Source: Balneola sp. (GTDB taxonomy: Bacteria > Bacteroidota > Rhodothermia > Balneolales > Balneolaceae). Taken from it: DNA of 64,000 bases. The stretch covers positions 1 to 64,000 of the forward strand of contig NZQV01000010.1 in assembly GCA_002696035.1 (NCBI GenBank), written 5' to 3'. Below are positions 7,936-56,377 of this stretch, piece after piece (the stretch's first letter is position 1; each line of letters opens with the position of its first letter). The translations under genes were made by a program, and so were the position numbers. A model generated the notes under the pieces. It did not search any database and was not told the DNA's origin. It was given only the letters and a program-made list of their open reading frames with translations.

Positions 7936-8526
7936 CTATGATCCCAATGTTTTATAGGCTTCGGTTTGATAGTATTTCGGGGTAGAATCGATTCGGGCAT
8001 GCAGCCAGTAAACGCCTAATCCGGACGTGCTTAACCACCGCGGTTCAGTACCCACATGTTTTGTCATTTGCTCACCAACCATTTTCCAGAATTTCAGTAT
8101 TTGTGATTCAGGGGCTTTTCGAACAAAATCGCCAATTTGTGTATAAATGCTATGATCAGAAACAGGGCAGGGGGCAACTAACATTGCATCACCACCTAAA
8201 TTGGGAAAAGAAACCACCTCGGAATCTGGTTCAAAATAAGAGCTGAATGTTTGAGGATCTGGATCTACATTTGCGAGAAGATTACTTTTTACGAGGTTAC
8301 ATTCGTAACCCTCCTTCATTGTTGGCTTAGTAAAAGGCTTGTTCTCCCAGAAAAAAGCTTTATAGTCACAACCAGCTAAAAAATCATTATAGCGTTTCCG
8401 AAAGTCAGAGCTCTGTTTTAGCTCATTTAAAAACTGTTGGCGAGAGATCCGGTTCTTATTTTCCAAAATAGAAAACCGAATACTTTCTTCAGATTCTTCC
8501 AATACGGTAAACTGATATCTGTTCAT
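7936..8526 (-). CDS. DUF6940 family protein
   Basis: 196 residues from the ATG at 8524-8526 (MNRYQFTV); an in-frame GTG further upstream at 8557-8559 would add 11 residues but runs into the tandem repeat, so I prefer the ATG. Recognisable family blocks are FFWENKPFT, a PDPQTFSSYF segment, VVSFPNLGGDAMLVAPCP and a C-terminal WLSTSGLGVYWLHARID. The last block resembles a conserved active-site-like surface, but no function is established that I know of. A 9-bp minisatellite lies 34 bases upstream of the start, in the promoter or leader region, so copy number could tune expression. Confidence 0.72.
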   Translation of the reverse strand: MNRYQFTVLEESEESIRFSILENKNRISRQQFLNELKQSSDFRKRYNDFLAGCDYKAFFWENKPFTKPTMKEGYECNLVKSNLLANVDPDPQTFSSYFEPDSEVVSFPNLGGDAMLVAPCPVSDHSIYTQIGDFVRKAPESQILKFWKMVGEQMTKHVGTEPRWLSTSGLGVYWLHARIDSTPKYYQTEAYKTLGS

Positions 8527-8560
8527 GGTAGTTTGATTACTTTTTATGATAATTCGCACA

Positions 8561-8619
8561 GGCGGACTAGGCGGACTAGGCGGACTAGGCGGACTAGGCG
8601 GACTAGGCGGACTAGGCGG
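8561..8619. repeat. 9-bp minisatellite (GGCGGACTA) x6.6
   Basis: Six perfect head-to-tail copies of GGCGGACTA (8561-8614) are followed by a partial GGCGG. No substitutions are present between copies. On the minus strand it lies just upstream of the DUF6940 start. The unit is a multiple of three but contains TAG when read as the minus strand, so it is not coding there. Confidence 0.95.
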
Positions 8620-8688
8620 CAGTCGATCAAACGGAGTGGTTTCTGGTGCAGAGAATGTGCCGTGTTCTGTTTATTGCCTTAAGATGTA

Positions 8689-9039
8689 TCATTCCCGTAA
8701 AATCTTCTCCATGGCTTTTCCCTTTGCTAACTCGTCGATCAGCTTATCCAGATAGCGTATTTCTTTCATGGTTGATTCTTCCATTTCCTCCACACGAATT
8801 CCACAGATCACGCCTTTTATTAAGCTCCGGAAAGGATTTATTTTGGGAGCTTCCGCAAAAAAAGTCTCGAAATCTGTCTTATTTTCAAGGATGTTCTCTA
8901 GTTGATCTTGGCTGTATCCCGTCAGCCAGCGAATAATTTTATCCACTTCTTCTTTGGTGCGGTCTTTGCGTTCTGCCTTGGCTACATAATGCGGATACAC
9001 GCTGGCAAAACTCGTGGTATAAATTCGATGCTTGGTCAT
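8689..9039 (-). CDS. DUF2200 domain-containing protein
   Basis: 116 residues that match the DUF2200 family throughout: an N-terminal block [19 protein letters not shown] and the [15 protein letters not shown] segment are highly characteristic. The family is small, single-domain, cytosolic and of unknown function. Length is normal. Monocistronic, between the minisatellite and a 200-base gap. Confidence 0.88.
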
Positions 9040-9241
9040 TTTAGTACCTCATACCTTTATTCTTCATTTTGAGATCAATCACTTAACACTGCCACCTCAA
9101 AGGGAAATGAGCTCCCGCCGCAATGAGGGATCGTCTAGGTTTAAACACATCTTTCGGCATACAACGAAATCGAAGTGTAACTATCTGTTTGCGAATTTAA
9201 AAGTAACGGTTTAGCTGCGAAATCAAATTCTGAAGAGAGGC

Positions 9242-9649
9242 TTAACTGTCTGTTGGGGAGAAGACACCCGAGGGAATCAAAGGATGACCTGAGTGATCTC
9301 CTTTAAAAAGATAGGAATATGCAACATCGGACCGCCCTTGAATTGTAATGGGAATTTCGCGGCGCTCAAATTCAGCAGATCCAGGCCTGTTATCGCCAAT
9401 ACCTTCATACTCATCTAAAAGTTGAAACAAATATTTAGGTTGATGGATGATGCGGTAAACATCTCCATAGACCTTAGAGTCTGAATCGGGATGATACTTG
9501 GCACCGGGATAAAAACTGATCTTAAATAACTTTCCGGGAAACTGACCCTTGCCAACAAAAGATTGTGTACGGTGTAAATACTGCGCGACTTCATTGTCGA
9601 AGTCTTTTTTCAAAGTTCCGTATACCAATAAAAGTTCCGTATTACTCAT
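9242..9649 (-). CDS. Gamma-glutamylcyclotransferase (GGCT/AIG2-like)
   Basis: 135 residues with the BtrG-like fold signature: the YGTLKKDF loop (about 10-17), a Gly-rich GKGQFPGKLF strand, YGDVYRI, and LLDEYEGI with the acidic pair. Such enzymes release 5-oxoproline from gamma-glutamyl amines or peptides; the specific substrate is not resolved. The ATG at 9647-9649 lies 36 bases beyond the stop of the SnoaL-like gene on the same strand, so a small operon (cupin, SnoaL-like, GGCT) is likely. Confidence 0.83.
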   Translation of the reverse strand: MSNTELLLVYGTLKKDFDNEVAQYLHRTQSFVGKGQFPGKLFKISFYPGAKYHPDSDSKVYGDVYRIIHQPKYLFQLLDEYEGIGDNRPGSAEFERREIPITIQGRSDVAYSYLFKGDHSGHPLIPSGVFSPTDS

Positions 9650-12729: not shown

Positions 12730-13809
12730 ATGACGGTACTATTTTTTATTCTTGGGTTAGTGATGCTAATAGCCGGGGCAGAATTATTTCTGAAATCGGT
12801 CGATAAATTTGGCCTGGCCTGGAGTGTTTCGCCTGTGGTAATGGGATTGACGGTGGTCGCCTTTGCAACCGGGGCCCCTGAGCTGGCTATCAGTTTGCAG
12901 GCTGCCGCCGAAGGGAAACCGGATCTGGTGCTGGGTAATATCCTGGGAAGTAATATTGCAAACATTTTGCTGATACTCGGAATAGCCGGACTGGTTAAAC
13001 CGCTAAAGATCACAAACCGCATCATAAAAATTGATGTGCCCGTAGTGATCGGCGCAAGTGTGCTTCTTTTCGTGTTGGCTATGGATGGCTCGCTAACCCC
13101 TCGTGATGGTTTCATCATTCTTGCTGCACTGGTAGTCTATTCACTTTTTGTATACCGGCAGATCAGGAAAGACCGACAGGTAAACCGGCTCAAAAATGAA
13201 GAAAATCCATCCAAACTGGATGAGCCGGTTACAGCATGGTTTTACACCAAGTATATTTTGATCTTGCTTATTGGACTGGCTTTTATTGTGTCTGGTTCGC
13301 GCTGGATGGTGGATGCAGCCGTTGAAATTGCGGGTGTTTTAGGGATCTCCGAACTGATCATAGGTTTGACGATCGTCTCCATTGGGACTTCGCTACCTGA
13401 AGTGGCAACCTCACTTTCTGCCGTCCGCCACAACGATTCTGATACCGCCGTTGCTAACGTGATGGGGAGTAACCTCTATAATATATTTCTCACTCTTGGG
13501 CTCACCATTGTGGTTGCTCCCGGTGCTTTATCCGTTTCTCCCGATGCCTTAAAACTAGACATGCCCATCATGATCGCGGTGGCACTGGCTTGTCTGCCGC
13601 TCTTTTGGCCGGGTAAACAACTGGGGCGAATTGAAGCCGGTGGCTTTTTATTCTACTACATTGCCTATATGGCCTATCTTGTTCTTATCTCCATTCAGCA
13701 CCCGCTGGAACAAACCATGGAGTGGTGGATGGTTTGGGTGATCATGCCGGTAACAGTAGTGTTGATCATTGCAAAATTTGTACTGGATTATAAGCGGGAG
13801 CGGCTTTAG
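12730..13809 (+). CDS. Calcium/sodium antiporter (YrbG-type, CaCA family)
   Basis: 359 residues, with about ten membrane segments. The inverted alpha repeats are clear: ATGAPELAISLQAAAEG with LGNILGSNIANILLILG in the first half, and GTSLPEVATSLSAVRHN with VANVMGSNLYNIFLTLG in the second. The first repeat has ATGAPE rather than the usual GTSxPE, a common variant. It exchanges cytosolic Ca2+ for Na+ across the inner membrane. The middle hydrophilic loop (about 135-165) is the cytosolic link. The ATG at 12730 was chosen because translation there begins directly with the first helix. Confidence 0.9.
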   Translation: MTVLFFILGLVMLIAGAELFLKSVDKFGLAWSVSPVVMGLTVVAFATGAPELAISLQAAAEGKPDLVLGNILGSNIANILLILGIAGLVKPLKITNRIIKIDVPVVIGASVLLFVLAMDGSLTPRDGFIILAALVVYSLFVYRQIRKDRQVNRLKNEENPSKLDEPVTAWFYTKYILILLIGLAFIVSGSRWMVDAAVEIAGVLGISELIIGLTIVSIGTSLPEVATSLSAVRHNDSDTAVANVMGSNLYNIFLTLGLTIVVAPGALSVSPDALKLDMPIMIAVALACLPLFWPGKQLGRIEAGGFLFYYIAYMAYLVLISIQHPLEQTMEWWMVWVIMPVTVVLIIAKFVLDYKRERL

Positions 13810-13845: not shown

Positions 13846-13917
13846 ATGAGTGTATTATTAAAGAAACCATCAGCAGTTCTGGTATTATGTTTTTTGGCGT
13901 TCATGATGAGTTCATGA
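13846..13917 (+). other. Orphaned lipoprotein signal-peptide ORF (23 codons)
   Basis: ATG at 13846 starts a perfect lipoprotein leader, MSVLLKKPSAVLVLCFLAFM, then MSS and a premature TGA at 13915-13917. Deleting one copy of the 11-bp duplication at 13900-13921 would restore MMSSC-GDEIPDD, a standard lipobox joined to the propeller ORF. The leader is thus intact but one frame away from its cargo. Confidence 0.8.
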
Positions 13918-14972
13918 TGAGTTCATGTGGGGATGAAATTCCAGACGATCAATCCACTCCTGACATTGATGATTTTATTGCTGTCAACCCAAAACTCATT
14001 CATTCCATAGACCACACCAGGGATCTCTTTTTTTCTCACCTTGGCTACGAAAGTGTTGTTCTGAATAATGGCGATGTTGCCTTTGGAGACCGGGAAATTC
14101 CGGCTATTGTCATCATAAACGAGGAGGGAGAACTTCAAAAAGAAATTTCTTCAGGGCGTGGCCCGGGAGAGATCCTTGATGCCTATCGTTTTACAAAAGA
14201 TGCCGACGGGAATGTGTACACCTATGATCAGGATAACGATAAGCTGATCATATACGACAAGGAGTTTAATTTACTTCGTGAGGTGATCCCTCCAAATTAT
14301 GAGTCCACTACAATGCTGAAGGCATACAAAACCGGGCAGGAGAATGAGCTTTTGCTGGAGCTAACCTCTTTTGAATATTTGCGGGATGAGAGCAAAGATC
14401 GGGAGAATATTTTAATTCAGTACAATACTGAAACAGAGACTTACGGTGGCGAAAAGATCCTGAAAGCACAACCCTATGCGCGTTTGTATGTTGACGGTAG
14501 TCCGGCAGGCGCATCTCTCGTACCTTACAGTTATGGGAATATCACCGCCTATCATCCGAGAAATCAGACGCTGTTCATTTATGATACGGCTACGGACCTG
14601 ATCGCTGAAATCAATGCTTCGTTTGATACCGTTCGAACAGTTTCTGTGAATCTGCCAAGTGAACCGATCTCATCTGCTGAGCGGGATTCTATGCAAAATT
14701 CTTACATTGACCTGCGCTGGGATGCAATCAAAGAACTGCTGCCTGATATAAAAGCTCCCGCTGATAAAATGATGTACCACAAAGGTGAATTTTGGCTGAA
14801 ATCTAACATTGAAGCGGATACAGAAGTGTGGCTGGTGGCAGATATGGAAGGAGTCATCGATCGGGTGGTGCATCTTCCCAAAGAAAGCATGCTCACGCAC
14901 GTTTCGGATAAACATCTTGGGGTTAGGCTGGATGATGTAACTTTTGCTTTATTTACTAATCCTGAACTTTAA
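13887..14972 (+). CDS. 6-bladed beta-propeller protein, signal peptide out of frame
   Basis: The open frame from ATG 13887 (or ATGs at 13914/13917) encodes a 6-bladed beta-propeller. Repeated strands such as VIINEEGELQKEISSGRGPGE, YTYDQDNDKLIIYDKE and LFIYDTATDLIAEINASFDT occur, and the GRGPGE loop is typical of this Bacteroidota family. The protein lacks a signal peptide in its own frame; the matching leader lies 41 bases upstream in another frame (13846). As sequenced it would be cytosolic or untranslated; with one 11-bp unit removed it becomes a normal lipoprotein like its neighbour 14991-16112. A phase-off allele, a recent mutation, or an assembly error are all possible. Ligand unknown. 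Confidence 0.8.
   Translation: MFFGVHDEFMMSSCGDEIPDDQSTPDIDDFIAVNPKLIHSIDHTRDLFFSHLGYESVVLNNGDVAFGDREIPAIVIINEEGELQKEISSGRGPGEILDAYRFTKDADGNVYTYDQDNDKLIIYDKEFNLLREVIPPNYESTTMLKAYKTGQENELLLELTSFEYLRDESKDRENILIQYNTETETYGGEKILKAQPYARLYVDGSPAGASLVPYSYGNITAYHPRNQTLFIYDTATDLIAEINASFDTVRTVSVNLPSEPISSAERDSMQNSYIDLRWDAIKELLPDIKAPADKMMYHKGEFWLKSNIEADTEVWLVADMEGVIDRVVHLPKESMLTHVSDKHLGVRLDDVTFALFTNPEL
13900..13921. repeat. 11-bp tandem duplication TTCATGATGAG x2
   Basis: TTCATGATGAG occurs at 13900-13910 and again at 13911-13921, followed by a partial third TTCATG. The unit is not a multiple of three, so each gain or loss shifts the frame exactly at the lipobox of the propeller lipoprotein. Confidence 0.95.
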
Positions 14973-14990: not shown

Positions 14991-16112
14991 ATGGGTAAAA
15001 GTGAGTGGTTAAAAGTAGTGCTCTTTTTTGGGATTTTGATAAGCCTGATGGGAGCTTGTAATGAATCTCAAGAACTCCAACCTAATGTTGATATTCAAGA
15101 GCTGGATGTAAAAATACCGGCTAAGATTTCTACCTTCTCCCAACTTGATACGCTGTACTATTCGTTTTTAGGATTGAATTCGTTACCGACACAAGACGGA
15201 GGATTTATTTTACCACTTTGGGGGCCTCCGACGCTGGTAAAAACGAATGCAGAAGGTTCGGTGATATTAGCAAGAACACAGGAAGGTCGTGGACCCGGGG
15301 AGTTACTTGATGTGGGAATTCCATCTCTGGGCAAAAATGAGGTTTATGTCTTTGATCAGAATCAGGACAAAATTGTGATTTATGATGCAAACAGTCTCAG
15401 CTTAATCAACGAATTTCTGGCGGAAGCGTATCCTGAATATAAAATCAGCCGAGTTTATCCTTCATTTGAGGCGGGAAGTGTACTTCTTGAATTGAGCAAC
15501 GCACAGCTAGAAATTGCCAAGATGCAAGAAAAATTACTTATCAAATTTGATATTGAGAATAAAGAGTACGGTGAGTCAATCCCCATTAAAGGTGAAGCAT
15601 ATGCGCCGTTGGGAGAGTTGATCAATGGGAGGTCTGGGACAGCAATGAAAGTCCCTTTTTCCGACAAACAGCTGATCACTCCGGCACCCGAACGAGGTTC
15701 TCTGCTACTTTTCGACACACGTACAAACCTGATCGCAGAGATCAATGCCAATTTCGATACGTTGAATACGATCAGGGTTGATCTTCCTACCGAATCTGTA
15801 TCTGCTGCTGAAAAAGATTCCATAAAGAATGAAGTGGAGTCCTTTCAGTCTGCGGATTGGAGTAATATGGAACCGTATATACCAGATGAAAAAGCTGTAG
15901 CAAACAATATGCTTTTCAACAATGACAAGATTTGGCTCAAATCAAACAACAGGGGAAAGGGAGATATTTGGTATGTACTAAATATGCAGGGCGTAGTGAC
16001 CGATGTGATACAATTACCGGCGAATACATTTTTGGCTCATGTTTCGGATGACCATTTGGGAGTAAGAATGGATCAAGTAACTTTTGCTTTGTATGAAAAC
16101 CCTCTTCCATAG
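14991..16112 (+). CDS. 6-bladed beta-propeller lipoprotein
   Basis: 373 residues. A lipoprotein signal ends LISLMGAC (Cys23), so the protein is anchored in the envelope. The body is a tandem paralogue of the preceding gene: TQEGRGPGELLDVGI, VYVFDQNQDKIVIYD, LLLFDTRTNLIAEINANFDT and the C-terminal HVSDDHLGVRMDQVTFALY match SGRGPGEILDA, IYDTATDLIAEINASFDT and HVSDKHLGVRLDDVTFALF there. It lies 18 bases after the upstream stop, indicating a duplicated two-gene operon. Function unknown; related propellers often bind peptides or glycans near outer-membrane transporters, but no such transporter is adjacent. Confidence 0.83.
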   Translation: MGKSEWLKVVLFFGILISLMGACNESQELQPNVDIQELDVKIPAKISTFSQLDTLYYSFLGLNSLPTQDGGFILPLWGPPTLVKTNAEGSVILARTQEGRGPGELLDVGIPSLGKNEVYVFDQNQDKIVIYDANSLSLINEFLAEAYPEYKISRVYPSFEAGSVLLELSNAQLEIAKMQEKLLIKFDIENKEYGESIPIKGEAYAPLGELINGRSGTAMKVPFSDKQLITPAPERGSLLLFDTRTNLIAEINANFDTLNTIRVDLPTESVSAAEKDSIKNEVESFQSADWSNMEPYIPDEKAVANNMLFNNDKIWLKSNNRGKGDIWYVLNMQGVVTDVIQLPANTFLAHVSDDHLGVRMDQVTFALYENPLP

Positions 16113-37308: not shown

Positions 37309-37357
37309 CTGCTAACTGCTAACTGCTAACTGCTAACTGCTAACTGCTAACTGCTAA
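37309..37357. repeat. 7-bp tandem repeat (CTGCTAA) x7
   Basis: Seven perfect head-to-tail copies of CTGCTAA between dnaE and trxA, with no substitution. In a repeat of this short length the copy number is likely variable between strains. No gene is interrupted. Confidence 0.95.
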
Positions 37358-37473
37358 CCAATATCACTCAACCCTATCACCCCAATAATTCAAAAGAATG
37401 TGTAAACTTGAATGAAATATCCCGATATTTGTTCAAGATTAAAGGAAATCATACAAACTAAATAGAAAGCATT

Positions 37474-55237: not shown

Positions 55238-56377
55238 ATGTATAAACTTTTGTTATCAGTTCTTCTTGTAAGTGTACCCGAACTGTTATTATCGCAAGAA
55301 GAGAACAGTTCAATCAATATCATAAACACTTATACGGATCAGAATAAGGAGTATCTATTTGGTATAATACTTGGGGTTGGAGTAGATCAACAAGAGAACA
55401 TATATGCTTTCGATTACGACCAAAATGCAGTTCTAAAATTAGATAAGGAAGGCAATTATTTAGGTAAAGTGATCAGGAGCGGAAGAGGACCTGCTGAAAT
55501 ACACAGCATGTATTCTTACTTGGTAGATGATGAAGCCAAACGGATTTACCTGACTGATAGAAGAAACGCTAAATATCTGGTTACCGATCTTCAGGGCAAT
55601 GAGATTGACCATCATTTCATTAAAACAGGCTATATGAATCCAGCTATGGGAATGGAAAGATATGATGAAAATACTTTAGCACTGTTATTTACTGTCTCTA
55701 AGTCTCAACTTATGCGTCAAGAAGAGGGAATTGATTCTTTAATTCATTTTTATGACAGAGATTCTTTCGAGCGGACATTCTCTCTTGCTGACAGAGAATA
55801 TTTTTCTACATTAGCGGAATATAAAACGGAAGCTCAGGGGCTATTGAATGAGACATTTGTAGGAAGCATTACATTTAAGGATTCTAGAACTCTATTAATT
55901 TCGCCTCATGTTTATAACAAGAGAATCATAGTATATGAGAAAGGGGAAAATGAAGAATGGTCTTTTTCCAAAACAATGGAAGGCAAAGAATGGGATACTG
56001 AGGCTTTTATAGAAGTAGATTTTGAGGACTACAGAAATAACAAATCCAAGTACAGATCAGAAGGCTTGAATATAGCATCTGCTTCTGGGATGGATGGAAA
56101 TGGTGCAGGTATCATAAAGCTATGGTCCGCTGGCATATATACGCTTGAGTCAGGAGAGATTGTGAATTTTATTGTACAGGAAGAAAATTTTAGGCACAAA
56201 CTGGTAGTAGAACGATATGATGAGTATCTAAACCACATAAGTTCAAGCACTATTTTTGAGGGGAAGAAAGGGGAGTTGATTATGGGTGTTCCTGATATGG
56301 ACCAGCAGGAAAATTTTTATATGCTTTCGCATTTCAGCAAACAATCTTCAAGAATTGTAAAGTTCTCGTTAGATTAA
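55238..56377 (+). CDS. Exported 6-bladed beta-propeller protein
   Basis: 379 residues with a signal peptide (MYKLLLSVLLVSVPELLLSQ). Blade motifs: IYAFDYDQNAVLKLDKEGNY, VIRSGRGPAEIHSM (the GRGPxE loop seen in the 13.9-16.1 kb paralogues), and RIYLTDRRNAKYLVTDLQG. The protein lacks a lipobox, so it is probably periplasmic or secreted without lipid. It belongs to the same superfamily as the tandem pair but is distant in sequence, and its DNA is AT-rich. Role unknown. The ATG at 55238 was chosen because the signal peptide begins there. Confidence 0.8.
   Translation: MYKLLLSVLLVSVPELLLSQEENSSINIINTYTDQNKEYLFGIILGVGVDQQENIYAFDYDQNAVLKLDKEGNYLGKVIRSGRGPAEIHSMYSYLVDDEAKRIYLTDRRNAKYLVTDLQGNEIDHHFIKTGYMNPAMGMERYDENTLALLFTVSKSQLMRQEEGIDSLIHFYDRDSFERTFSLADREYFSTLAEYKTEAQGLLNETFVGSITFKDSRTLLISPHVYNKRIIVYEKGENEEWSFSKTMEGKEWDTEAFIEVDFEDYRNNKSKYRSEGLNIASASGMDGNGAGIIKLWSAGIYTLESGEIVNFIVQEENFRHKLVVERYDEYLNHISSSTIFEGKKGELIMGVPDMDQQENFYMLSHFSKQSSRIVKFSLD

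What the first reader, a model, noticed from the sequence alone, without database searches (positions are those of the whole stretch)
13846..13950. 11-bp duplication disconnects a lipoprotein signal peptide from its beta-propeller
TTCATGATGAG is tandemly duplicated exactly before the lipobox. With one copy the leader MSVLLKKPSAVLVLCFLAFM joins MSSCGDE in one frame; with two copies a TGA ends the leader and the body loses its export signal. This is a slippage-type ON/OFF switch candidate for surface exposure, or a fresh mutation. The intact tandem paralogue immediately downstream shows what the ON form looks like.
Basis: partly seen in the sequence, partly recalled or inferred. Interest (0 to 1): 0.75.

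Follow-up and report, generated by a model that had tools for sequence, protein, structure and literature searches.

The report
Small duplication breaks lipoprotein export signal
In a marine Gracilimonas-type bacterium, an 11-base stutter cuts one exported beta-propeller lipoprotein off from its export signal; it looks like an ordinary recent, possibly reversible, mutation and not an evolved on/off switch.

Summary
Window 13899-13927 is a perfect 11-bp tandem repeat (2.6 copies), unique in the genome. It ends a 23-aa lipoprotein leader (13846-13917, TGA) just before the cysteine. The body (13914-14972, 352 aa) lies in another frame with no usable export signal. Orthologues in other Gracilimonas genomes, and every wider relative examined, have one continuous leader-lipobox-body frame. 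None has a tandem array at this site.

The ON/OFF-switch reading has no positive support. The array equals one 11-bp unit plus a 7-bp microhomology. Such precursors occur about once per 220 bp in this genome, so no special hypermutable site is needed. The body keeps 62 of 63 family-conserved residues, has a normal branch length and folds confidently as a beta-propeller, so the break is very recent.

Best explanation: a fresh, slippage-generated tandem duplication that mislocalises or silences one lipoprotein. It can in principle revert by losing a unit, as pneumococcal capsule duplications do. An assembly error or a mixed population cannot be excluded without reads.

The parts
13846..13917 (+). 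Orphaned lipoprotein leader ORF, 23 aa (MSVLLKKPSAVLVLCFLAFMMSS), ended by TGA at 13915-13917
   Evidence: Translation and hydropathy; sequence
13899..13927 (+). Perfect tandem repeat, 11-bp unit, 2.6 copies, with 7-bp microhomology GTTCATG at its ends
   Evidence: TRF, own scan, genome-wide uniqueness
13914..13917 (+). ATGA overlap of leader stop (TGA 13915-13917) and first body start (ATG 13914-13916); candidate reinitiation site
   Evidence: Read from the sequence; function inferred
13914..14972 (+). Body of the beta-propeller lipoprotein, 352 aa, in the -1 frame relative to the leader; lipobox cysteine codon at 13926-13928
   Evidence: ORF list; orthologues; structure model
14991..16112 (+). 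Intact paralogous propeller lipoprotein (373 aa), about 35% identical, older clade
12730..13809 (+). Na+/Ca2+ exchanger gene upstream, conserved neighbour of the orthologues
   Evidence: Pfam Na_Ca_ex; gene order

Best explanation
A recent spontaneous 11-bp tandem duplication, made by replication slippage across a 7-bp microhomology (GTTCATG ... GTTCATG), frameshifted an ordinary exported beta-propeller lipoprotein gene at its lipobox. Shown: the repeat, the broken frame, the single-frame orthologues and the conserved body. Inferred: the ancestral state had one unit; the leader is now translated as a 23-aa dead-end peptide; any body protein comes from reinitiation at the ATGA overlap or internal starts and stays in the cytoplasm without lipid; and loss of one unit can revert the allele at a raised rate. 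It is a loss-of-export allele that could revert, not a dedicated switch.
For: Perfect 11-bp array with an 18-bp self-match, unique in the genome. Orthologues next to the same exchanger gene or in the same neighbourhood in five other genomes of the genus (G002, G004, G006, G008, G009) each have one continuous leader with a lipobox Cys, as do the wider relatives read. No fetched locus other than the window's own carries the 17-bp repeat core, and leader-region repeats in relatives are 5-9 bp. The body frame offers no alternative signal peptide: best 10-residue hydropathy 0.6-1.3, against 3.2 for the split-off leader and 2.1-3.3 for relatives. 62 of 63 family-conserved positions are kept and the one change is I to V. 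Terminal branch 0.20 against 0.25 for G006. Confident propeller model, pLDDT 91. Precursors of at least 7 bp occur once per 221 bp. Neighbouring genes are full length.
Against: Only one genome of this species could be examined and no reads, so recency, strain frequency and reversion are inferred. An assembly error would look the same.
Confidence: 0.72

Rival explanations
1. An assembly or sequencing error: the real chromosome has no duplication and the lipoprotein is intact.
For: Body conservation and normal branch length are what an intact gene would show. No reads are available. A relative's orthologue also shows a frameshift, in a MAG.
Against: A clean 11-bp tandem duplication with microhomology at its ends is a typical biological mutation and an unusual consensus error. 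The contig is long (892 kb), the genome is 97% complete with 0.1% contamination, and neighbouring genes are full length.
Confidence: 0.13
2. An evolved slipped-strand ON/OFF (phase-variation) switch of lipoprotein export.
For: The unit is not a multiple of three, so unit gain or loss changes the frame at the lipobox. The body has been kept under constraint. The genome holds other perfect short-unit arrays.
Against: No array at this site in orthologues or wider relatives. Only 2.6 copies. The precursor is generic. No mixed population shown; only one allele in the assembly.
Confidence: 0.06
3. The duplicated allele still works: ribosomal -1 frameshifting rejoins the leader to the body, or reinitiation makes a useful cytoplasmic form.
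For: ATGA stop/start overlap with a second ATG directly after. A T6 run lies upstream in the leader (13890-13895). The body is well conserved.
Against: No relative uses such an arrangement. No good slippery heptamer directly before the stop. A shift at the T6 run would put charged residues between the hydrophobic core and the lipobox. Conservation is explained by recency.
Confidence: 0.07

Closest known systems
Spontaneous tandem duplications in pneumococcal capsule genes (cap3A, cap8E/wchA, tts; Waite et al. 2001, 2003, cited in PMC4243769 and PMC4022640)
   Same: A direct tandem duplication inside an ORF switches off a surface product; described there as spontaneous and reversible sequence duplication.
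   Different: Capsule genes in a pathogen, with phase switching observed experimentally. Here a lipoprotein leader in a marine bacterium, one allele only and no switching observed.
Microhomology-mediated tandem duplications (MTD), for example fission yeast ssp1 (review PMC13207564)
   Same: Duplication bounded by a short microhomology, creating a premature stop and inherently unstable.
   Different: Eukaryote. Reversion here is not tested.
Six-bladed beta-propeller lipoproteins, Pfam PF17170 (DUF5128)
   Same: 15 of 18 aligned family members match this model; lipobox leader in relatives; propeller fold predicted.
   Different: The window protein itself scores below Pfam cut-offs, and its leader is split off.

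Membership tests
Slipped-strand phase-variable (contingency) locus | Tandem repeat whose unit-number change alters the reading frame or expression | tested here: met
   11-bp unit, 2.6 copies, across the leader/body junction
Slipped-strand phase-variable (contingency) locus | Repeat tract maintained at the site among strains or relatives | tested here: not met
   No tandem array in orthologues or wider relatives. Same-species strains were not available.
Slipped-strand phase-variable (contingency) locus | Both states coexist or interconvert at high frequency | not testable with these tools
   No reads and no second isolate; one allele in the assembly
Microhomology-bounded spontaneous tandem duplication | Perfect tandem copy with short homology at the duplication ends | tested here: met
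   18-bp self-match at offset 11, that is 11 plus 7 bp microhomology
Microhomology-bounded spontaneous tandem duplication | Ancestral state without the duplication | tested here: met
   Inferred from orthologues with a single continuous frame; the immediate ancestor is not sampled
DUF5128-type beta-propeller lipoprotein | Sequence match to PF17170 | tested here: inconclusive
   The window body matches only DUF4221 weakly, below cut-off; the adjacent paralogue hits PF17170 weakly; 15 of 18 aligned family members hit PF17170 at E up to 0.01
DUF5128-type beta-propeller lipoprotein | Beta-propeller fold | tested here: met
   AlphaFold2 pLDDT 91, pTM 0.89, mostly beta; best PDB matches are NHL and other propellers, and Bacteroides fragilis BF0058
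DUF5128-type beta-propeller lipoprotein | Signal peptide with lipobox cysteine in frame | tested here: not met
   Leader and cysteine lie in different frames here, whereas relatives have them joined

The most novel reading that the evidence does not exclude
Cells alternate, by gain and loss of the 11-bp unit, between an exported lipidated propeller and a cytoplasmic form made by reinitiation at the ATGA overlap, so that the repeat toggles the location and not the presence of the protein.
Probability: 0.05. Interest if true: 0.5.

Novelty: new member of a known kind. Interest (0 to 1): 0.17.

Why it matters
If the duplication is real, it is one more example of a potentially reversible loss of an exported protein by an unplanned short duplication, in the phylum Balneolota, where one library search for phase variation found a single paper, on flagellins in general. 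It also warns that a short tandem repeat at a functional site is not by itself evidence of a phase switch, because microhomologies that can seed one occur in practically every gene.

Tried and rejected
Rejected: a chance repeat (Markov simulation). Rejected: a repeat family or hot-spot motif (single site in the genome; precursors generic). Rejected: an alternative start giving another signal peptide (body-frame hydropathy too low). Rejected: decay of the body as an old pseudogene. Rejected: the downstream paralogue as a recent copy (separate clade). Led nowhere: the first scan of genome contigs with the single protein found nothing; the alignment scan gave relatives with names but no second strain of the species. 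The paper on fission-yeast MTDs (PMC8639346) was not held. No branch-specific selection test was run: synonymous sites are probably saturated at 66% protein identity.

Full report
Observation. The sequence at 13899-13927 is GTTCATGATGAGTTCATGATGAGTTCATG, a perfect repeat of period 11 with 2.6 copies. It has an 18-bp self-match at offset 11. In a 464-kb sample of this genome (the window plus the next 400 kb of the contig), only two multi-copy arrays have longer self-matches. First-order Markov sequences of the same size gave 0 to 4 repeats with a self-match of at least 11 bp. The repeat occurs once in the 3.97-Mb genome. The duplication is therefore real in this assembly and not a chance match.

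Effect on the gene. From ATG 13846 the frame reads MSVLLKKPSAVLVLCFLAFMMSS and stops at TGA 13915-13917, where a lipoprotein would have its lipid-bearing cysteine. The cysteine and the 350-residue body lie in the -1 frame, open from 13914 to 14972. The leader stop and the first body ATG overlap as ATGA (13914-13917), with another ATG directly after. The body frame upstream of the cysteine (MFFGVHDEFMMSSC or longer) has no hydrophobic core: best 10-residue mean hydropathy 0.6-1.3, compared with 3.2 for the orphaned leader and 2.1-3.3 for relatives. So no alternative export signal is visible. The ATGA overlap suggests, as an inference, that some cytoplasmic body protein could be made by termination-reinitiation, so mislocalisation is as likely as absence.

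What the protein is. Fifteen of 18 aligned family members match Pfam DUF5128, a six-bladed beta-propeller. The window protein itself is below every curated cut-off. AlphaFold2 on an alignment of 18 sequences gives a mostly beta propeller-like model with mean pLDDT 91 and pTM 0.89. Foldseek against the PDB returns NHL and other propellers and the Bacteroides fragilis exported protein BF0058.

Orthologues. The host belongs with Gracilimonas (Balneolaceae): same-genus genomes share contig lengths with Gracilimonas amylolytica LA399 (G002, 560,937 bp), G. mengyeensis DSM 21985 (G003, 541,180 bp) and a Gracilimonas MAG (G008, 121,201 bp). In G002 and G009 the gene lies directly between the same Na+/Ca2+ exchanger and the same DNA glycosylase-like gene as in the window's neighbourhood. 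In G004 and G006 it lies between the same two genes with other genes inserted. In G008 only the exchanger side is shared. The nearest orthologue, in G006, is 66% identical. All these orthologues, and the wider relatives read, have leader, lipobox and start of the body in one frame. None has the 17-bp repeat core. The orthologue in G008 is broken differently, by what looks like a 1-nt loss in the body. The downstream paralogue 14991-16112 is intact but falls in another clade with genes of other genera, so it is an old paralogue and not a fresh duplicate.

Age of the break. Of 63 body positions that are conserved in the other nine aligned family members (at most one exception), the window protein departs at one, I to V, fewer than any other member. 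Its terminal branch is 0.20, against 0.25 for its closest relative. The body has no further stop or frameshift. The break is thus very recent, or the gene has been functional for nearly all of its history.

Mechanism of origin. The array equals one 11-bp unit plus a 7-bp microhomology (GTTCATG) at its ends, the usual signature of replication slippage (established knowledge). Direct repeats of at least 7 bp within 8-60 bp occur once per 221 bp in this genome sample, and 14 of 7-10 bp lie at offset 11. Almost any gene offers such substrates, so neither an evolved hypermutable tract nor selection for switching is needed. The new array has a longer internal homology than its precursor, so loss of one unit should be more frequent than its formation (inference).

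Comparison with known cases. The closest precedent is the spontaneous, reversible sequence duplication in pneumococcal capsule genes (Waite et al. 2001 and 2003, cited in PMC4243769 and PMC4022640). Microhomology-mediated tandem duplications in fission yeast are the eukaryotic equivalent (PMC13207564). Whether the allele here switches in the population cannot be tested: there are no reads, no second isolate and one genome per species.

Verdict. The finding is a correctly observed loss-of-export allele. The ON/OFF switch remains possible but has no positive evidence, and an assembly error is the main unresolved alternative.

Noticed in passing
window 37309-37358: Perfect heptanucleotide array CTGCTAA x 7.1 between a DNA polymerase III alpha-like gene (ends 37244) and a thioredoxin-like gene (starts 37474), unique in the genome. 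A long short-unit array like this looks more slippage-prone than the reported site; it is intergenic.
   Followed up: partly
window 8560-8619: Perfect 9-bp array AGGCGGACT x 6.7, unique in the genome, immediately upstream of or overlapping the start of the minus-strand ORF 7936-8559.
   Followed up: partly
L050 (G008) 8437-9560: The orthologue of the same lipoprotein in a Gracilimonas MAG has a frameshift in its body, apparently a single-base loss: a second independent disruption of this gene, or an assembly error.
   Followed up: partly
window 55238-56377: A third, distant propeller relative (379 aa, with a GRGPAEI motif) that starts with a signal-peptide-like N-terminus and shows no lipobox cysteine near the start.
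   Followed up: no
L047 and L048 (G004:C13 and G004:C6): One genus genome carries the orthologous region twice on separate contigs, with the same match scores for this gene and its neighbours: a recent large duplication or an assembly duplicate.
   Followed up: no
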